Assembly (NCBI RefSeq): GCF_023650515.1
Contig: NZ_CP096016.1
Coordinates: forward strand, 3,350,001-3,414,000
Direction: 5' to 3'
Source of the DNA: Alkalimarinus coralli
Lineage (GTDB): Bacteria > Pseudomonadota > Gammaproteobacteria > Pseudomonadales > Oleiphilaceae
DNA length: 64,000 bases
The notes beneath the pieces are model-generated. The model worked only from the letters and a program-made list of their open reading frames with translations. It searched no databases and was not told where the DNA came from. The position numbers and the translations under genes were made by a program. Positions 50,014 through 62,797 of this stretch are shown here, in pieces (the stretch's first letter is position 1; each line of letters starts with the position of its first letter).

Positions 50014-51718
50014 AGGCTGTGAAAGTATTAACAAGCAAGAGATTCTTTGACTTCAAAACGAACTCGAAGCGAATCTGGCGTCATTACAACGGCCTTTATA
50101 ATTATTGTCTGTAGAAACAGGTAATACTTATAGGCCTTTAAATATAGCTCTGGGCTCCTTCTATTAAGGCGAAACAGAGCTTTATTTTTTATCTCCTCAA
50201 GGAGCCTGTCGAACCCCAACACATTAAGTGCACGTGTGAGATTATAACATAACGCCATTAAACTAAACTCAGCCGCTACCTTCTCTTGGCCTCTTAGCAG
50301 GAAGTGGCTCCAACCTGCTCTAGATTTCATCGTGCCAAATGGGTGCTCAACGAGTGTACTTCGCTCGCGCATTTTTCCTTTGCTTACCTTCATTCGTTCT
50401 TGATGAGCTGTGAGCAGGTCTGCATTCTCACTTCGCCACACGACTCGGCAAGGTATTTTCTCCCCAAGACAGCTTGCTTTTTGGGGGCAGCTTTTACAGA
50501 CTGTTTCTGATGCACTGAAGCGATGAAATACTTGTCCGTTCTGTGTGCGGGGCGACCCTCGTTGGTTTAATGACTCTCCTGCAGGGCACACATAATGATT
50601 TTTCCTCGCATCATATATGAACTGGTCTTTTGTGTACCTTCCCTTTTTCCCTTTACCCCCCGTTTTAGGCTTGGGAACATAAGGTGTTATCTTATCTTTT
50701 ACACACTTAGCAATATGCGCCCCGCTGTAATAGCCCGCATCAGCAAGCACTTCTAACTCATCTGAATTCAGTATTTTCTTTGCTTTTAGCGACATTGGGT
50801 GCAATTGTTTAAGGTCGTTTGGCTCCGTTGTGACTTCTTCGCAAACGATCAAGTGATGCTTGTTATCTACTGCTATCTGTACGCTGTAGCCGGATACCTT
50901 TTGAGTTCCTTTGTTCAGTAAACGGGCATCTTTGTCTGTACTGCTCTCTTGTGTTTTTTTAGATTTTTCTAACCTTTTTAATTCGCTCTCTTTATCTTGT
51001 TTTTCTTTTTTCCAGTCTTCGAGTTGCTGAAGCACTTTTTCCAGTTCAATATCACTGGGCTTGTTTTCTTCTTCCTTTTCCTGCGCATCTTGCTGATCTA
51101 GCTCGTTCTGCCATTGCTCGATATGCGCCTCTAGCTTTTTGAGCTTCTTCTTGAGACCTGTGGTGGTCGTAAAGCTCTTGCGGCTCGCGCTTCCTTTAAA
51201 GAAACTGCCGTCAATAGCAATGCACTGGCCTCCAAACAACGAAAGTTTCTTGCAGAATAAAATAAACTCTTTATGAGTCTCCCGAATCGCACGCCGGTTT
51301 TGGCTGCGAAAATTAGCGATCGTCTTATAGCTTGGCTTAAGCCCTTGAACTAACCACATCACCTCTATATTACGGTGGCACTCTTGTTCCAACCGACGAC
51401 TCGACTTAATGCGGTTTAGATATCCGTAGAGGTAAAGCTTGAGTAACGCACCGGGAGGGTAGGCAGGCTGCCCGCTATTAACCTTGTTTTCTAAGGTATG
51501 TTGATAGCCGAGCTTTCCTAAGTCTAAACATTCAACATAGGCATCAAGGGCTCTGATGGGATGCCTCTCATGCACGTAGTCATCCATATGGCTCGGAAAC
51601 AAATCCCCTTGATCGCGGGAGTGTGTTTTCTTGTATTGTCTTCCCATTTTCTTATATCTTCGAAGTCGTTAGGCGACGATATTATACAGCGGGGAGCCTA
51701 TGGATACTTTCACAGCCT
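50014..51718 (-). mobile_element. IS1182-like insertion sequence, copy 1
   Basis: 1705 bp with perfect 15-bp ends (AGGCTGTGAAAGTAT) and a 5-bp target duplication CGAAG (50009-50013 and 51719-51723). One transposase gene fills it. Same length and, as far as I can compare, same sequence as copy 2 at 58587-60291. It interrupts a REP unit in the gap between tex and gshA. Confidence 0.93.
50028..51647 (-). CDS. IS1182-like transposase (copy 1)
   Basis: 539 residues. DUF772-type N-terminal domain (GALLKLYLYGYLNRIKSSRRLE) and a DDE domain with Asp146 (AIDGSFF), Asp303 (LADAGYYSG) and Glu434 (VEHPFGTMK), interrupted by a Lys/Glu-rich coiled coil (about 165-235) and by a Cys cluster (CPAGESL, CKSCPQKASC, about 353-394). 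Intact reading frame, identical to copy 2. The stop codon touches the right-hand terminal repeat. Confidence 0.93.
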   Translation of the reverse strand: MGRQYKKTHSRDQGDLFPSHMDDYVHERHPIRALDAYVECLDLGKLGYQHTLENKVNSGQPAYPPGALLKLYLYGYLNRIKSSRRLEQECHRNIEVMWLVQGLKPSYKTIANFRSQNRRAIRETHKEFILFCKKLSLFGGQCIAIDGSFFKGSASRKSFTTTTGLKKKLKKLEAHIEQWQNELDQQDAQEKEEENKPSDIELEKVLQQLEDWKKEKQDKESELKRLEKSKKTQESSTDKDARLLNKGTQKVSGYSVQIAVDNKHHLIVCEEVTTEPNDLKQLHPMSLKAKKILNSDELEVLADAGYYSGAHIAKCVKDKITPYVPKPKTGGKGKKGRYTKDQFIYDARKNHYVCPAGESLNQRGSPRTQNGQVFHRFSASETVCKSCPQKASCLGEKIPCRVVWRSENADLLTAHQERMKVSKGKMRERSTLVEHPFGTMKSRAGWSHFLLRGQEKVAAEFSLMALCYNLTRALNVLGFDRLLEEIKNKALFRLNRRSPELYLKAYKYYLFLQTIIIKAVVMTPDSLRVRFEVKESLAC

Positions 51719-51784
51719 CGAAGCGGAATCAAGGGGGAAGTGGTTTTCCTTGATTCCAGTCGTGCCTCCTTTCATCACGGCTAC
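51719..51784. repeat. REP pair copy B, remaining half beyond the IS
   Basis: Starts with the duplicated CGAAG, then CGGAATCAAGGG completing the type-1 unit, a spacer, and a type-2 unit on the minus strand (51750-51784; reads GTAGCCGTGATGAAAGGAGG and ends GGAATCAAGG). Ends 17 bp before the tex stop codon. Confidence 0.85.
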
Positions 51785-56527: not shown

Positions 56528-58543
56528 GTGTCACGACTCAACCCCAGACAACGCGAGGCCGTACATTATGTTAGTGGCCCTCTTTTGGTTCTTGCCGGTG
56601 CTGGCAGTGGTAAAACCAGCGTAATCACCAGCAAAATAGTCTATCTGGTTGAGCAATGTGGCATCAAAGCCAGAAATATTGCAGCCCTGACATTTACCAA
56701 TAAAGCAGCTCGTGAGATGAAAGAGCGTGTCGGCAAACTGCTGAAAGGGAAGGACGCTAAAGGCCTCACGGTATCGACGTTTCATAACCTCGGCCTGAAC
56801 ATCATTCGGCAAGAACATAAAGTGCTGGGGTATAAATCCGGCTTTACCATTTTTGATTCCGAAGATGCCAAGGCACTGATTCGTGACCTGATGATGAAGG
56901 ACTTTTCCGATACCGGAGAAGAGGTCGCTGACGTGCAGATGGCCATTTCGAACTGGAAAAACGACATGTTATGCCCAGACCGGGCCCTTAGCCGTGCGAA
57001 AGACGAGCGCGAACAGATGATGGCTCAGGTCTACAAACTCTATAACCGATACCTGAAGGCCTATAACGCGGTTGATTTTGACGACCTTATTTTGTTGCCC
57101 GTAACACTGTTTCAAAATAACCCTGAAATCCTCGATAAATGGCAGAATAAACTTCGCTATCTATTGGTCGATGAATATCAAGATACCAACATCACTCAAT
57201 ATGAGCTGGTCAAGATGCTGGTTGGGGTCAGAGCCACATTTACCGTAGTTGGGGATGATGATCAGTCAATCTATTCATGGCGTGGGGCTCGCCCCGAAAA
57301 TCTGGTGAAGCTAAAAGAGGATTTCCCCAATCTCAACCTCATCAAACTTGAGCAAAACTACCGCTCTACTCGGCTCATCCTGAATGCGGCCAACCAGGTT
57401 ATCGCCAACAACCCTCACGTATTTGAAAAGGCACTCTGGAGCGATTTTGCGGTCGGTGACCAGATACGCATTATCGAGTGCCGAAATGAAGATGCAGAAG
57501 CTGAGCGCATAGCCGGAGAAATCCTTAACTTTAAACTCAAGAATAAAGTCGACTTTAAAGACTTTGCGATCCTATACCGCGGCAATCACCAATCACGGTT
57601 GCTGGAGATAAAGCTGCAGGCGTTTCAGATTCCCTACCAGTTGTCGGGCGGTACCTCTTTTTTCGCTCGAAACGAAATTAAAGATGCCATGGCCTATCTG
57701 CGATTATTGATAAACCCGGAAGACGATGCCGCCTTTTTGCGCATTATCAACGTGCCACGCAGAGAGATAGGCCCCAGCACGGTCGAAAAACTCGGTAATT
57801 ATGCCACCGAACGAGACTGCGGTCTGTATCAGGCCGTTGATGAAATTGGTCTGGAACAGCACCTGACGGGCAAAGGGCTAGAAAGGGTCAGGCGGTTCAC
57901 TCACTGGCTTCGCAACACCACCCGACGCTGCAGCCAGGAAGACCCGGTAACCGTGATCAAACAGATGTTTACCGATATTGAGTATGAAGAGTGGTTGCAT
58001 GAAAACAGCGCCTCACCCACTCAGGCTGAGCGCAGAATGGCAAACGTCTGGTACCTGATCGATTCGCTGCAAAAAATGCTCGATAAAGACAAAGGCACGG
58101 CCGATGAAATTGGCATTGATGAAGCCGTCACCAAACTTGTTCTAAGAGATATGCTAGAACAGCAACAAGAGGAAGAGGAGACCGATAAAGTCCACTTAAT
58201 GACCCTGCACGCATCAAAGGGGCTCGAATTCCCCCATGTGTTCATCATGGGGCTGGAAGAAGAGATACTGCCTCACCGTGCCAGCATTGAAGAAAATAAT
58301 ATCGAAGAAGAGCGCCGCCTGATGTACGTCGGAATTACCCGCGCCAAGAAAACCCTCGCACTGACTTATGCTGGAACCCGCAAGCAATATGGCGAAAAAA
58401 TTGAGACCATCCCCAGCCGTTTTCTTGATGAGCTGCCGGAGGATGATGTGGTATGGGAAGGTGGCGGCAAAAACGACAAAGCCGTTAATCAGGAAAAGGG
58501 TAAAGCCACGCTCGCCAGTTTGAAGGATTTGATGGGGGAATAA
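56528..58543 (+). CDS. rep: ATP-dependent DNA helicase Rep
   Basis: UvrD/Rep-family superfamily 1 helicase that unwinds 3'-5' and clears proteins ahead of forks. 671 residues, GTG start at 56528. Walker A LAGAGSGKT (about 22-30), DEYQDTN (motif II), DDDQSIYSWRGA (motif III), QNYRST (motif IV), LMTLHASKGLEFPHV (motif V) and RRLMYVGITRAK (motif VI). Length and N-terminus MSRLNPRQREAVHYV match Rep rather than UvrD. IS copy 2 inserts 43 bp after its stop. Confidence 0.95.
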   Translation: MSRLNPRQREAVHYVSGPLLVLAGAGSGKTSVITSKIVYLVEQCGIKARNIAALTFTNKAAREMKERVGKLLKGKDAKGLTVSTFHNLGLNIIRQEHKVLGYKSGFTIFDSEDAKALIRDLMMKDFSDTGEEVADVQMAISNWKNDMLCPDRALSRAKDEREQMMAQVYKLYNRYLKAYNAVDFDDLILLPVTLFQNNPEILDKWQNKLRYLLVDEYQDTNITQYELVKMLVGVRATFTVVGDDDQSIYSWRGARPENLVKLKEDFPNLNLIKLEQNYRSTRLILNAANQVIANNPHVFEKALWSDFAVGDQIRIIECRNEDAEAERIAGEILNFKLKNKVDFKDFAILYRGNHQSRLLEIKLQAFQIPYQLSGGTSFFARNEIKDAMAYLRLLINPEDDAAFLRIINVPRREIGPSTVEKLGNYATERDCGLYQAVDEIGLEQHLTGKGLERVRRFTHWLRNTTRRCSQEDPVTVIKQMFTDIEYEEWLHENSASPTQAERRMANVWYLIDSLQKMLDKDKGTADEIGIDEAVTKLVLRDMLEQQQEEEETDKVHLMTLHASKGLEFPHVFIMGLEEEILPHRASIEENNIEEERRLMYVGITRAKKTLALTYAGTRKQYGEKIETIPSRFLDELPEDDVVWEGGGKNDKAVNQEKGKATLASLKDLMGE

Positions 58544-58569: not shown

Positions 58570-58586
58570 CCCTTGATTCCGCTTCG
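58570..58586. repeat. REP pair copy C, left part before the IS
   Basis: CCCTTGATTCCGCTTCG, the tail of a type-1 REP on the minus strand, cut by IS copy 2; its last five bases (CTTCG, 58582-58586) are the target duplication. Confidence 0.85.
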
Positions 58587-60291
58587 AGGCTGTGAAAGTA
58601 TCCATAGGCTCCCCGCTGTATAATATCGTCGCCTAACGACTTCGAAGATATAAGAAAATGGGAAGACAATACAAGAAAACACACTCCCGCGATCAAGGGG
58701 ATTTGTTTCCGAGCCATATGGATGACTACGTGCATGAGAGGCATCCCATCAGAGCCCTTGATGCCTATGTTGAATGTTTAGACTTAGGAAAGCTCGGCTA
58801 TCAACATACCTTAGAAAACAAGGTTAATAGCGGGCAGCCTGCCTACCCTCCCGGTGCGTTACTCAAGCTTTACCTCTACGGATATCTAAACCGCATTAAG
58901 TCGAGTCGTCGGTTGGAACAAGAGTGCCACCGTAATATAGAGGTGATGTGGTTAGTTCAAGGGCTTAAGCCAAGCTATAAGACGATCGCTAATTTTCGCA
59001 GCCAAAACCGGCGTGCGATTCGGGAGACTCATAAAGAGTTTATTTTATTCTGCAAGAAACTTTCGTTGTTTGGAGGCCAGTGCATTGCTATTGACGGCAG
59101 TTTCTTTAAAGGAAGCGCGAGCCGCAAGAGCTTTACGACCACCACAGGTCTCAAGAAGAAGCTCAAAAAGCTAGAGGCGCATATCGAGCAATGGCAGAAC
59201 GAGCTAGATCAGCAAGATGCGCAGGAAAAGGAAGAAGAAAACAAGCCCAGTGATATTGAACTGGAAAAAGTGCTTCAGCAACTCGAAGACTGGAAAAAAG
59301 AAAAACAAGATAAAGAGAGCGAATTAAAAAGGTTAGAAAAATCTAAAAAAACACAAGAGAGCAGTACAGACAAAGATGCCCGTTTACTGAACAAAGGAAC
59401 TCAAAAGGTATCCGGCTACAGCGTACAGATAGCAGTAGATAACAAGCATCACTTGATCGTTTGCGAAGAAGTCACAACGGAGCCAAACGACCTTAAACAA
59501 TTGCACCCAATGTCGCTAAAAGCAAAGAAAATACTGAATTCAGATGAGTTAGAAGTGCTTGCTGATGCGGGCTATTACAGCGGGGCGCATATTGCTAAGT
59601 GTGTAAAAGATAAGATAACACCTTATGTTCCCAAGCCTAAAACGGGGGGTAAAGGGAAAAAGGGAAGGTACACAAAAGACCAGTTCATATATGATGCGAG
59701 GAAAAATCATTATGTGTGCCCTGCAGGAGAGTCATTAAACCAACGAGGGTCGCCCCGCACACAGAACGGACAAGTATTTCATCGCTTCAGTGCATCAGAA
59801 ACAGTCTGTAAAAGCTGCCCCCAAAAAGCAAGCTGTCTTGGGGAGAAAATACCTTGCCGAGTCGTGTGGCGAAGTGAGAATGCAGACCTGCTCACAGCTC
59901 ATCAAGAACGAATGAAGGTAAGCAAAGGAAAAATGCGCGAGCGAAGTACACTCGTTGAGCACCCATTTGGCACGATGAAATCTAGAGCAGGTTGGAGCCA
60001 CTTCCTGCTAAGAGGCCAAGAGAAGGTAGCGGCTGAGTTTAGTTTAATGGCGTTATGTTATAATCTCACACGTGCACTTAATGTGTTGGGGTTCGACAGG
60101 CTCCTTGAGGAGATAAAAAATAAAGCTCTGTTTCGCCTTAATAGAAGGAGCCCAGAGCTATATTTAAAGGCCTATAAGTATTACCTGTTTCTACAGACAA
60201 TAATTATAAAGGCCGTTGTAATGACGCCAGATTCGCTTCGAGTTCGTTTTGAAGTCAAAGAATCTCTTGCTTGTTAATACTTTCACAGCCT
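58587..60291 (+). mobile_element. IS1182-like insertion sequence, copy 2
   Basis: 1705 bp, perfect 15-bp inverted ends, and a duplicated target CTTCG (58582-58586 and 60292-60296). Opposite orientation to copy 1. The 61032-61123 REP shows the same site without the insertion (GATTCCGCTTCGCTGCATCA), which fixes the IS ends. Confidence 0.94.
58658..60277 (+). CDS. IS1182-like transposase (copy 2)
   Basis: 539 residues, identical to copy 1 (Asp146, Asp303, Glu434). Seventy-one bp separate the IS end from its start in both copies. Both reading frames are intact, so the element is probably recent and may still be active. Confidence 0.93.
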   Translation: MGRQYKKTHSRDQGDLFPSHMDDYVHERHPIRALDAYVECLDLGKLGYQHTLENKVNSGQPAYPPGALLKLYLYGYLNRIKSSRRLEQECHRNIEVMWLVQGLKPSYKTIANFRSQNRRAIRETHKEFILFCKKLSLFGGQCIAIDGSFFKGSASRKSFTTTTGLKKKLKKLEAHIEQWQNELDQQDAQEKEEENKPSDIELEKVLQQLEDWKKEKQDKESELKRLEKSKKTQESSTDKDARLLNKGTQKVSGYSVQIAVDNKHHLIVCEEVTTEPNDLKQLHPMSLKAKKILNSDELEVLADAGYYSGAHIAKCVKDKITPYVPKPKTGGKGKKGRYTKDQFIYDARKNHYVCPAGESLNQRGSPRTQNGQVFHRFSASETVCKSCPQKASCLGEKIPCRVVWRSENADLLTAHQERMKVSKGKMRERSTLVEHPFGTMKSRAGWSHFLLRGQEKVAAEFSLMALCYNLTRALNVLGFDRLLEEIKNKALFRLNRRSPELYLKAYKYYLFLQTIIIKAVVMTPDSLRVRFEVKESLAC

Positions 60292-60371
60292 CTTCGCTGC
60301 ATCACGGCTACAGAATAGTGCGGAATGTGCACTTGTAGCCTTGATGCAAGGAGGCACGACTGGAATCAGGG
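60292..60371. repeat. REP pair copy C, right part, ending at the RAYT gene
   Basis: After the duplicated CTTCG, CTGCATCACGGCTAC (60297-60311) completes the type-1 unit on the minus strand. After a 23-bp spacer, a type-2 unit on the plus strand runs 60335-60371 (starts GTAGCCTTGATGCAAGGAGG, ends GGAATCAGGG), one base before the RAYT stop codon. CCTTGATGCAAGG in it is a perfect hairpin (5-bp stem). The sequence is identical to the copy at 61032-61123. Confidence 0.88.
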
Positions 60372-60372
60372 A

Positions 60373-60903
60373 TTACTCTCCGAAATCAAAGTCGGCTTCA
60401 GGGGTTATTACTGATCCCCATTCGGGTTCTAGAACACCTTTTTTTACAAAAGAATGGAATGATGACCATGGCCAATTTGTTGGGTTTTCAACATAACCGT
60501 GTTTCACAGGGTTGTAATGGATATAGTCTATATGCCGATTGTAGTCTTCTTGGCTTTTTATCGTATGCTCCCAATACCGCCTTTGCCAGACATCAAAACC
60601 TCCGTGTTTATTTGCATTAAGGGGAACGCCTGATTTACGAATATTTCGAGTGAAACTCGATTTGATAAAGCGCCAGCGGGAAGGATAATCGATGTCACCT
60701 TCAGGCAAGCCCCAAATTGTATGCAGGTGATCAGGCAAAATCACGATGGCATCAATAGTGAAAAACTGCTTATTTCGACACAGTCGAAAAGCATTTCGGA
60801 GTTCATCAATATAATCTGTTAAGTATGTTGTTTTTCTGTTCTTTAACGTAACAGTGAAAAAATATGTTCCGCCAGCTACAAAATTTCTTCGGTAGGCAAC
60901 CAT
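60373..60903 (-). CDS. REP-associated tyrosine transposase (RAYT, Y1_Tnp)
   Basis: 176-residue single-domain HUH nuclease of the IS200/IS605-related RAYT family. It shows the metal motif ILPDHLHTIW (HLH) and the downstream helix YNRHIDYIHYNPVKHG, where the catalytic Tyr lies. RAYT proteins bind and nick GTAG-headed REP hairpins and are thought to spread them. Here the gene lies between two identical REP pairs (60292-60371 and 61032-61123), with a truncated copy (60973-61024) upstream of it. ATG start at 60903. This arrangement is a strong candidate for a live or recently live REP system. Confidence 0.92.
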   Translation of the reverse strand: MVAYRRNFVAGGTYFFTVTLKNRKTTYLTDYIDELRNAFRLCRNKQFFTIDAIVILPDHLHTIWGLPEGDIDYPSRWRFIKSSFTRNIRKSGVPLNANKHGGFDVWQRRYWEHTIKSQEDYNRHIDYIHYNPVKHGYVENPTNWPWSSFHSFVKKGVLEPEWGSVITPEADFDFGE

Positions 60904-60972
60904 CTTCCTTGATACTTCCTTTTAATATGTTATTCCTGATCAAAACAGCCCTTTGTTTTGACAATTGTATCT

Positions 60973-61024
60973 CCTTGATTCCGCTTCGCTACAGAATAGT
61001 GCGAGACATGCACCCGTAACCTTG
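60973..61024. repeat. Truncated REP copy E upstream of RAYT
   Basis: CCTTGATTCCGCTTCGCT then ACAGAATAGTGCG: same order as copy D, but an 11-bp piece (GCATCACGGCT) is missing between repeated GCT. The spacer and the start of the type-2 unit (GTAACCTTG) follow but are degenerate. A decayed REP pair. Confidence 0.75.
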
Positions 61025-61031
61025 CCCCCCT

Positions 61032-61123
61032 CCCTTGATTCCGCTTCGCTGCATCACGGCTACAGAATAGTGCGGAATGTGCACTTGTAGCCTTGATGCA
61101 AGGAGGCACGACTGGAATCAGGG
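61032..61123. repeat. Intact REP pair (BIME copy D), empty IS site
   Basis: Type-1 REP on the minus strand (61032-61063) and type-2 REP on the plus strand (61087-61123) with GTAG heads facing inward, spacer of 23 bp. CCCTTGATTCC and GGAATCAGGG at the outer ends, and GGCTAC and GTAGCC at the inner ends, are inverted repeats. It matches copy C base for base where I compared, and shows the uninterrupted IS target CTTCG. Confidence 0.9.
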
Positions 61124-61138
61124 AATCATAGACAGAAC

Positions 61139-62797
61139 TTACGCCCTTTGCGTCTCGGCCTTCAGCTTCGGGCTCTCTTCCGGTTTGTAAATATCCTTGA
61201 TCAGCCCCATCACTTTATAGCTCTCTTTCAAACCCACCATTGCGCAGGTACTCATAACGCCACCCATGAGCGCACCACCGACCCCGGCAGTCACAACATC
61301 GGCGCCGGTAAGATAAAGGTTCTTAACAGGCGTTATCGGGTGTAACCAGTCCTGCTGAAAGCGGTCAACCGTATGATTGATACCATAAATTTCGCCCTCT
61401 TTATTCCATTGGAACCACTGGGTCGATAACGGTGTTGAAAGTTCTACATAGTCGATGGCGTCACGCAGTTGTGGCATGTGCTTATACAGCGTCTCAAGCA
61501 GCGAGTTTTGAATCTCTTCTTTTAACTCATCATACCCTTCACCACGCTTGTTCCACGTTGTCCCTTGCCACTGCTGAAACCACTTATGATTGGTGGGTGC
61601 GACAATTTCAACCGTTGACTTACCCGGGAAACGATCATTCCAGGCAGGGTCTTTGGCAGATGGGAACGAAATATAGGTCAGTGGAAAATCATCTGTACCG
61701 TCTGAGGCCAAGAAACGTGAAACATTCTCATCATGATTCACATCAGGGTAGATCCAGAAGTTAGTCTTCGGGATATTCAGCTCCTCGGCTGTCCCCTTAA
61801 ACCCGGCATAGATACAGACGTGAGAAGCCGACAGCTCAACCTTATTCAACTGCTTAAGCAAGCCGTTTTTCTTGGCGACTTTTTCAGGTAACAAGTCCTG
61901 ATAGGTTGGGTAAATTCCCGCATTGCTGACAATCTGATCCGCAAATATTTCGTGTCCGCCTTTCTTTAAACGAACGCCGTAAGCCCGGTTGTTTTTAACC
62001 AGGATTTCATCCACACCAGCATAGGTAAAGACATTGCCGCCCGCCTGCTTAATTACCGGAATAATCGTCTCGGAGATACGGGATGAGCCACCCACAGGGT
62101 AATTGCCTCCAGCAATATAGTGCTTGGCCACCATCGCATGCATCATAAATGACGAATCTTTTGGCGTTAGGCCGTAATCGCCCCACTGAGCCGTCAGCAC
62201 ACCGATAAGCTCTTCATTCTTAGTCAGGCCTTCCAGCACCTCGCGAGTACTTTTAAAGAAATAGTCAGGCAGCATATAGTGGCGTGCTTTGTTGTAAACA
62301 ACCGCAGCCAATTTAGGCAATGCCTGCCCTGCAAAGTAGCGAGGCACCAATTTGCTAACATTGCCCAATAGCTCAACATACTGATCAATCGCATCGGCTT
62401 CAGCAGGAAAATACTCCTTCATCTGCTGTTTAAACGGCTCCTTGCCGGCAAGGTAATCATAGGTTTTGTCGCCAATGATAATGCGGTCATAGAGCTGATC
62501 CATATACGCCCATTCCAGCTGGCTATCTGAGATCACATCAAACACGCGGCGAAGCATCGAGTACGGTTTGTGAACCTCACCGACATAGTGAACGCCCACA
62601 TCCCACTCATAGCCATTGCGCTCATAGGTATGACTGTAACCACCCGCAGTGTAGTGCTGCTCCAGCACACACACTTTTTTGCCTAGTTTGGACAGCAGAG
62701 CGGCATTGCACAAACCACCAGGGCCTGACCCAATAACAATCACATCATAATGAGTGTCTGCTCTATCCTTACGAAAACGAGTTCCTGTACGTTTCAC
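61139..62797 (-). CDS. FAD-dependent oxidoreductase, RetSat / carotenoid isomerase-like
   Basis: 552 residues with an N-terminal FAD Rossmann motif VIVIGSGPGGLCNAALLSKLG (shown in shortened form: IGSGPGGLCNAALL) and YTAGGYSHTYERNGYEWDVG, typical of the phytoene-desaturase / all-trans-retinol 13,14-reductase (RetSat) family. A C-terminal GADVVTAGVGGALMGGVMST closes the FAD domain. Substrate unknown; likely a polyunsaturated or isoprenoid compound. Divergent from the PadR regulator, with two operator-like palindromes between. Confidence 0.85.
   Translation of the reverse strand: MKRTGTRFRKDRADTHYDVIVIGSGPGGLCNAALLSKLGKKVCVLEQHYTAGGYSHTYERNGYEWDVGVHYVGEVHKPYSMLRRVFDVISDSQLEWAYMDQLYDRIIIGDKTYDYLAGKEPFKQQMKEYFPAEADAIDQYVELLGNVSKLVPRYFAGQALPKLAAVVYNKARHYMLPDYFFKSTREVLEGLTKNEELIGVLTAQWGDYGLTPKDSSFMMHAMVAKHYIAGGNYPVGGSSRISETIIPVIKQAGGNVFTYAGVDEILVKNNRAYGVRLKKGGHEIFADQIVSNAGIYPTYQDLLPEKVAKKNGLLKQLNKVELSASHVCIYAGFKGTAEELNIPKTNFWIYPDVNHDENVSRFLASDGTDDFPLTYISFPSAKDPAWNDRFPGKSTVEIVAPTNHKWFQQWQGTTWNKRGEGYDELKEEIQNSLLETLYKHMPQLRDAIDYVELSTPLSTQWFQWNKEGEIYGINHTVDRFQQDWLHPITPVKNLYLTGADVVTAGVGGALMGGVMSTCAMVGLKESYKVMGLIKDIYKPEESPKLKAETQRA

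What the first reader, a model, noticed from the sequence alone, without database searches (positions are those of the whole stretch)
60292..61123. RAYT gene framed by two identical REP pairs
Seen in sequence: the 176-residue HUH tyrosine transposase gene is bracketed by REP pairs that are identical in unit order, spacer and sequence (60292-60371 with its IS-split left part at 58570, and 61032-61123), plus a truncated third. Each REP starts with GTAG and carries a small hairpin (CCTTGATGCAAGG). Established: RAYT proteins act on GTAG-headed REPs. Inference: the gene and its flanking REPs may have moved as a unit, or the REPs were copied around their own transposase. The REP tail (GGAATCAGGG) and the two-subtype arrangement look like a lineage-specific REP class.
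Basis: partly seen in the sequence, partly recalled or inferred. Interest (0 to 1): 0.78.

Follow-up and report, generated by a model that had tools for sequence, protein, structure and literature searches.

The report
REP transposase between identical REP pairs
A long-resident single-copy enzyme gene sits between two identical copies of the small DNA hairpins it is thought to act on, and the same hairpins are the landing sites of a jumping gene that seems to aim at hairpin tips.

Summary
The RAYT (TnpA-REP) gene lies between two REP doublets, in direct orientation, identical over 97 of 97 bases. About 100 such REPs of two core types were found in the genome; the class is confined to the genus among 58 genomes searched. 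"Moved as a unit" is not supported: in a congener RAYT has the same neighbours and its two doublets are also identical to each other (96 of 96) but differ from ours, so flanking doublets evolve in concert. Two congeners keep the neighbours but lack RAYT; one retains exactly one doublet, as expected of deletion between direct repeats. The less expected finding is the IS that splits the left REP: an IS1182-family element with 12 identical copies, 12 of 12 at the same point of a type-1 REP; in congener G003, 27 of 27 related IS ends found at contig ends sit there too. Two relatives elsewhere with the same ends sit at tips of hairpins of unrelated sequence, the target duplication being loop plus closing pair. 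The RAYT part is a known kind; hairpin-tip targeting of REPs by an IS1182 element looks like a new variant.

The parts
60373..60903 (-). RAYT / TnpA-REP gene, 176 aa; by the alignment to 4er8: HUH = H59-L60-H61, catalytic Tyr = Y127, N131
   Evidence: 79.5% aa identity and dN/dS about 0.08 against the G001 ortholog (dS 1.4, near saturation)
58571..58586 (-). outer part of the left type-1 REP, ending in the target duplication CTTCG (58582-58586)
58587..60291 (+). IS1182-family insertion sequence, 1705 bp, 15-bp terminal inverted repeats AGGCTGTGAAAGTAT; transposase ORF 58658-60277
   Evidence: NF033551 397 bits; 12 copies at 100% plus one decayed copy; ends and duplication
60292..60311 (-). second CTTCG duplication (60292-60296) and inner part of the left type-1 REP with its GTAG head
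60335..60371 (+). left type-2 REP, GTAGCCTTGAT...ATCAGGG; ends one base from the RAYT stop codon
60973..61024 (.). truncated third REP doublet upstream of RAYT
   Evidence: read; weak match (E=7e-4)
61033..61063 (-). right type-1 REP
61087..61123 (+). right type-2 REP
56528..58543 (+). left conserved neighbour, Rep DNA helicase
   Evidence: TIGR01074 above cut-off; same neighbour in G001, G002, G004
61139..62797 (-). right conserved neighbour, FAD-dependent phytoene-desaturase-like protein
   Evidence: 89-94% identical in 4 of 4 congeners
50014..51718 (-). second identical IS copy in the window, also inside a type-1 REP (duplication CTTCG), next to a type-2 REP at 51748-51784

Best explanation
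This is a resident, vertically inherited REPtron of the E. coli (group 2) type. One RAYT gene nicks and rejoins single-stranded GTAG REP hairpins and has seeded about 100 REPs, many of them as inverted doublets of one type-1 and one type-2 unit (inferred from the known E. coli enzyme; not tested here). The gene lies between two doublets in direct orientation. These are repeatedly made identical within a genome, most simply by gene conversion or unequal crossing-over between about 95-bp direct repeats; RAYT-driven copying is the alternative (inferred). The same repeats let the gene drop out and leave one doublet, as seen in G002 (the product is shown, the mechanism inferred). Independently, an IS1182-family element uses type-1 REPs as its landing site and cuts at the hairpin tip, duplicating the loop plus its closing base pair (insertion point shown; recognition of shape rather than sequence inferred).
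For: RAYT identity. REP census: 100 hits, control 0. Opposite-strand neighbours within 110 bp pair unlike cores in 50 of 54 (G000), 24 of 24 (G001) and 13 of 14 (G002), and unlike stems in 52 of 54, 23 of 24 and 11 of 14; with arrays collapsed, unlike cores in 17 of 21, 9 of 9, 11 of 12 clusters and mixed stems in 19 of 21, 8 of 9, 9 of 12. Doublets identical 97/97 in G000 and 96/96 in G001, but 85/96 between the two genomes with all differences in the spacer. Synteny, and the single doublet without RAYT in G002. FAD-gene tree ((G000,G004),(G001,(G002,G003))), splits 0.99, puts the two RAYT carriers on opposite sides, so at least two losses. IS: 12 of 12 full copies; in G003 27 of 27 IS ends at contig ends, found with IS letters alone. 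Duplications C-GAA-G, C-GCA-G, C-GTA-G or complements; both orientations (7 and 5). Same-ended relatives: G345 in GTTCCCACG[CTCCTG]CGTGGGAA and G296 in GGG[CCATG]CCC.
Against: REPs in RAYT-less congeners show no clear decay: type-1 mean mismatch 1.28, 1.36, 1.71 against 1.48 and 1.39 in the carriers; type-2 higher in G002 and G003 (2.10, 2.53) but not in G004 (1.55) against 1.54 and 1.55. The doublet rule fails in G004 (cores 5 of 14, stems 4 of 14) and for stems in G003 (4 of 9). Type-2 REPs do not fold well on their GTAG strand alone (-4.2 and -2.1 against -3.6 and -3.5 kcal/mol for the complements), so the strand preference seen for type-1 is not general. The hairpin-tip rule rests on three element lineages and three target sequences. 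One IS-like end in G004 is not in a REP. REP is sequence-conserved, so sequence recognition explains the IS data inside this genus equally well.
Confidence: 0.72

Rival explanations
1. The RAYT and its two doublets form a mobile unit that inserted between the Rep helicase and FAD genes, like a composite transposon, and the doublets are the unit's ends.
For: Two identical direct doublets around the gene; of the four congeners, two (G002, G004) have a readable site without the gene.
Against: Single copy; same site in two species on opposite sides of the gene tree; G001 doublets differ from G000 doublets, so the ends are not fossils of one insertion; REPs of this class also fill the RAYT-less congeners. 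[quoted passage not shown]
Confidence: 0.1
2. RAYT itself re-copies REPs next to its gene, and that copying, not homologous recombination, keeps the two doublets identical.
For: PMC3686654 (passages read) proposes preferential action of RAYT on REPs flanking its gene; the flanking doublets are identical in both carriers.
Against: The identical tract runs through both REPs and the spacer, which ordinary gene conversion also gives. In a survey of RAYT relatives only 20 of 81 with both flanks have long direct repeats (at least 40 bp at 85%), and of these only G001 reaches 100% over more than 80 bp.
Confidence: 0.25
3. The IS recognises the type-1 REP base sequence, not hairpin shape; its insertion at the tip only reflects the symmetry of the target.
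For: Within the genus the targets share the REP sequence. Type-2 REPs, which lack GCGAAGC, were hit in none of the junctions read.
Against: Relatives with the same inverted repeats (45-46% transposase identity) sit at the tips of two unrelated hairpins, with duplications of loop plus closing pair: 5 bp for 3-nt loops, 6 bp for the 4-nt loop. Their transposases may simply have other sequence preferences.
Confidence: 0.4

Closest known systems
E. coli REPtron, TnpA-REP (PDB 4er8), group 2 RAYT
   Same: Homologous protein over nearly full length (E=5e-43); GTAG-headed REPs with an interrupted stem; several REP kinds combined in inverted doublets; single copy; gene loss in relatives, as reported for E. 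coli strains.
   Different: Flanked by two identical direct doublets; the REP class is genus-specific; stem versions and core types are exchanged between the two arms.
REP-specific insertion sequences of Tobes & Pareja 2006 (PMC1525189, passages read), above all ISRm22 and ISPsy8
   Same: All copies in REPs at one fixed point; the paper places ISPsy8 and ISRm22 at the symmetry axis of the REP; ISRm22 gives 6-bp repeats.
   Different: The families it names are IS3, IS110, IS4, IS256 and IS5; the term IS1182 does not occur in it (listing). I did not test whether ISRm22 would now be classed with IS1182.
IS1272 (IS1182 family), structure-dependent transposition (PMC5678879)
   Same: Same family name as our element by NF033551 and the paper; palindromic targets; its model pathway c predicts duplication of the loop.
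   Different: IS1272 replaces the whole stem-loop; here the stem halves remain and only loop plus closing pair is duplicated.
REPINs and BIMEs
   Same: Inverted REP doublets and tandem arrays (periods about 114, 119 and 140 bp).
   Different: Mostly unlike cores and unlike stems in the doublets of three of five genomes.

Membership tests
REPtron with a group 2 RAYT | HUH Y1 transposase of the REP-associated kind | tested here: met
   NF047646 above cut-off; alignment with 4er8 keeps HUH, Tyr and Asn
REPtron with a group 2 RAYT | gene flanked by REPs that are abundant in the genome | tested here: met
REPtron with a group 2 RAYT | single copy, no sign of moving as a unit | tested here: met
REPtron with a group 2 RAYT | two flanking REPs in inverted orientation (Nunvar 2010 abstract) | tested here: met
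   Each doublet contains both orientations, so inverted REPs flank the gene; the doublets as wholes are direct
REPtron with a group 2 RAYT | cleavage of single-stranded REP by the purified protein | not testable with these tools
   needs bench work
Mobile unit with REP doublets as ends | several sites, or an empty site without REPs, in relatives | tested here: not met
   one site only in G000 and the one orthologous site in G001; empty sites keep one doublet (G002) or one REP remnant (G004)
IS1182 family | transposase above the family cut-off | tested here: met
   NF033551 397 bits, cut-off 270
IS1182 family | terminal inverted repeats and target duplication | tested here: met
   15-bp repeats, 5-bp duplication in 12 of 12 copies
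REP-specific IS (type 1 association) | 100% of copies in REPs at one fixed point | tested here: met
   12 of 12 full copies in G000; 27 of 27 IS ends at the 66 contig ends of G003
Structure-directed insertion | hairpins of different sequence used, duplication length following loop length | tested here: inconclusive
   3 element lineages, 3 target sequences agree; no experiment

The most novel reading that the evidence does not exclude
A lineage of IS1182-type elements with ends AGGCTGTGAAAGTAT reads extruded DNA hairpins, not base sequence: it cuts both strands at the tip so that the target duplication equals the loop plus its closing pair, and its duplication length therefore tracks loop size. 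REPs spread by RAYT then act as a large supply of harmless intergenic landing pads, which would tie the fate of the IS to the RAYT.
Probability: 0.4. Interest if true: 0.66.

Novelty: new variant of a known kind. Interest (0 to 1): 0.46.

Why it matters
The genus is a compact natural experiment: the same RAYT site with two identical doublets (two species), with one doublet and no gene (one species), and with a single REP remnant (one species). This makes the open question of how flanking REPs stay alike, and how RAYT genes are lost, directly testable. The IS gives a simple, falsifiable rule (duplication = loop + closing pair) for structure-directed insertion by a DDE transposase, which the IS1272 paper put forward only as one branch of a model.

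Tried and rejected
Small hairpin CCTTGATGCAAGG as the general REP core: rejected, although it is the predicted fold of the window's own type-2 REP. The rival count for the long stem (512 of 553 cells) is inflated, because the search patterns fix five of its seven pairs; of the two free pairs one is a T-A in 78 of 79 type-2 and 61 of 65 type-1 sequences (standard pairs), the other is the T..G / G..A position. Movement as a unit: not supported. REP decay after RAYT loss: no clear signal. Direct doublets as a general rule of RAYT genes: rejected; of 81 surveyed RAYT relatives with both flanks, 20 have direct repeats of at least 40 bp and 85%, 50 have inverted ones of at least 25 bp and 85%, 3 have none; 9 more of the 90 loci were dropped for short flanks, and 80 of the 90 are the best of 574 hits. 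Hairpin-tip insertion as a rule for all IS1182 relatives: not borne out. One search took 28 loci: three gave no inverted repeat, one (L221) a spurious one, three are the AGGCTGTGAAAGTAT elements, and of the other 21 the chosen duplication is 4 bp in 16; their targets range from no dyad to one clear palindrome (L231, nine pairs around the duplication) and one short tip-like stem (L229, four pairs), so palindrome preference is wider than my three cases. mis-set the register of the window's own IS (L042); one search gives the right one. One search assumed a wrong locus orientation and was replaced. One search used a pattern that contains target letters (CNNCG, one mismatch allowed) and so favours REP junctions; one search repeats the test on all 66 contig ends of G003 (fetched) with IS letters only: 27 ends, 27 in type-1 halves. 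One further G003 end lies inside a contig (C13) and is also in a type-1 half. Labels HEADHALF/TAILHALF are too lax; I classified those junctions by reading. The G000 pair counts left out five variants listed; one search adds them. The listing for G000 is itself cut, so the pair set is not complete. Literature on IS1182 together with REPs. Two papers hold both terms; in PMC10433421 they are unrelated passages, PMC7911792 was not opened. Of the longer listings I opened only a few. Eight papers were read in passages or named sections, none whole.

Full report
What is there. The window is bases 3350001-3414000 of a 4.83-Mb one-contig genome, G000. The RAYT ORF at 60373-60903 (-) is a REP-associated tyrosine transposase by NCBIfam (186.9 bits, cut-off 80) and aligns with E. 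coli TnpA-REP 4er8 at E=5e-43; HUH and Tyr are kept. It is single copy: the next match in its own genome has 30% identity. REP doublets lie on both sides in the same orientation. The left one is split by an IS with a CTTCG duplication; counted with one CTTCG it equals the right one in 97 of 97 bases. A truncated third doublet lies upstream of RAYT.

The REP class. Two patterns with up to 3 mismatches find 40 type-1 and 60 type-2 REPs, and none with the reversed patterns. A looser pattern gives 92, 47, 43, 48 and 55 hits in G000-G004 (same genus). Outside the genus 44 of 53 genomes have none and 9 have 1 or 2. The eight non-genus relatives with a RAYT match have 0 or 1 of these REPs, so their RAYTs presumably go with other REPs.

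Doublet architecture. The outer stem is CCxTGAT/ATCAxGG; five of its seven pairs are fixed by my search patterns, so its conservation is partly imposed. The free third position is T..G or G..A in nearly all copies and rarely Watson-Crick. Opposite-strand REPs within 110 bp combine unlike cores and unlike stems: cores 50/54, 24/24, 13/14 and stems 52/54, 23/24, 11/14 in G000, G001 and G002. Collapsed to clusters these are cores 17/21, 9/9, 11/12 and stems 19/21, 8/9, 9/12. Cores and stems are exchanged between doublets (type-1 with G..A plus type-2 with T..G, or the reverse). A doublet of like stems would be a more perfect long palindrome, so the rule may limit long cruciforms; that is inference. 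It does not hold in G004 (5/14, 4/14), and in G003 only for cores (8/9; stems 4/9). DNA folding favours the GTAG strand of type-1 (-4.1 against -1.1 kcal/mol), shows no consistent preference for type-2, and folds the whole window doublet into one long hairpin (-25.3).

History of the locus. The Rep helicase and FAD genes flank the site in G000, G001, G002 and G004; in G003 the contig ends at an IS end inside a type-1 REP beside the FAD gene. G001 has RAYT (80% identity, 79.5%) between two doublets identical in 96 of 96 bases; between G000 and G001 the doublets match in only 85 of 96 columns, all differences in the spacer. Hence concerted evolution. G002 has exactly one doublet in the same orientation and no RAYT; G004 has one type-1 REP remnant and no RAYT. 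No RAYT match was found anywhere in G002, G003 or G004 at E up to 1e-10. The FAD tree is ((G000,G004),(G001,(G002,G003))) with support 0.99, so, if it is the species tree, RAYT was ancestral at this site and lost at least twice. Purifying selection on RAYT is indicated by dN/dS about 0.08, rough because dS is high. Against the decay model, REPs in RAYT-less genomes are not clearly more degraded.

The IS. The element that splits the left REP is of the IS1182 family (NF033551): 1705 bp, 12 full copies at 100% and a decayed thirteenth. All 12 lie at the same point of a type-1 REP, with duplications CTTCG, CTGCG, CTACG or complements, in both orientations; the right end of the decayed copy is also in a type-1 REP (L174). 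None is in a type-2 REP. IS ends were then sought in five genomes with a pattern that includes target letters and therefore favours REP junctions. It gave 28 in G003 (13 read, 15, all in type-1 halves), 3 in G002 (two are the ends of a 168-bp element without a transposase gene, L207, in a REP; the third is beside a degenerate REP-like half), 1 in G004 not in a REP, none in G001. To remove that bias I took all 66 contig ends of G003 and searched them with the IS letters alone: 27 have an IS end, and 27 of 27 run into a type-1 half. In the folded type-1 REP the duplicated CGAAG is the loop GAA plus its closing C-G.

Shape or sequence. Of 390 genomes of the order, 8 including G000 have a transposase relative at E up to 1e-100. 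Two of the other seven carry the same ends AGGCTGTGAAAGTAT. One (G345) lies in GTTCCCACG[CTCCTG]CGTGGGAA, the other (G296) in GGG[CCATG]CCC: unrelated hairpins, cut at the tip, duplication equal to loop plus closing pair, 6 bp for a 4-nt loop and 5 bp for a 3-nt loop. Of 21 relatives with other ends for which a plausible inverted repeat was found, 16 have 4-bp duplications; most targets are imperfect dyads or none, with one clear palindrome (L231) and one short tip-like stem (L229). The three tip cases fit pathway c (loop duplication) of the IS1272 model (PMC5678879, Discussion part 1 read).

Known or new. RAYTs flanked by inverted REPs, joint evolution of flanking REPs, RAYT loss, and immobility of REPtrons are in print (PMC2817692, PMC3686654, PMC6006769, PMC3733652; passages, plus one section of the last). 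ISs that insert at the symmetry axis of REPs are in print for ISPsy8 and ISRm22 (PMC1525189, passages). I did not see, in the listings, a paper on an IS1182 element specific for REPs or on the loop-plus-closing-pair rule; those listings are capped and most entries were not opened. Verdict: a new variant of known kinds, of moderate interest; the IS is the better half.

Noticed in passing
G002:C1, L207:586-753: A 168-bp element without a transposase gene but with IS-like ends sits in a type-1 REP (duplication CTGCG): a MITE-like derivative that shares the REP target.
   Followed up: partly
G003, contig ends: 27 of 66 contig ends run into this IS family inside a type-1 REP, so REP-targeted IS copies account for many of the breaks in that assembly; the left end differs from the window's IS.
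   Followed up: yes
G000:C1:3124251-3125639: Decayed thirteenth IS copy in two pieces (99% and 93% identity), unlike the 12 identical copies: an older insertion with its right end in a type-1 REP.
   Followed up: partly
G000:C1:267534-267964, 353258-353588, 1805676-1806272, 4242951-4243670; G001:C1:68919-69742: Tandem arrays of REP doublets with fixed periods (about 114, 119, 140 and 148 bp) and near-identical units.
   Followed up: no
G001:C1:913901-914431: A second, divergent RAYT (39% identity) in the congener; its own REPs were not examined.
   Followed up: no
G000:C1:205856-206233: Distant match to the RAYT protein (30% identity, E=3.7e-6), possibly another Y1 transposase.
   Followed up: no
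G004:C69:36366-38003: The FAD gene next to the RAYT-less site has one in-frame TAG near its C-terminus in the translated match.
   Followed up: no
L222-L232 (IS1182 elements on plasmids): Several relatives with other ends have 4-bp duplications centred on imperfect dyads such as CCGCTTCT[GGCC]GATAGCAG, and L231 lies in a nine-pair palindrome: a looser palindrome preference in the family.
   Followed up: partly
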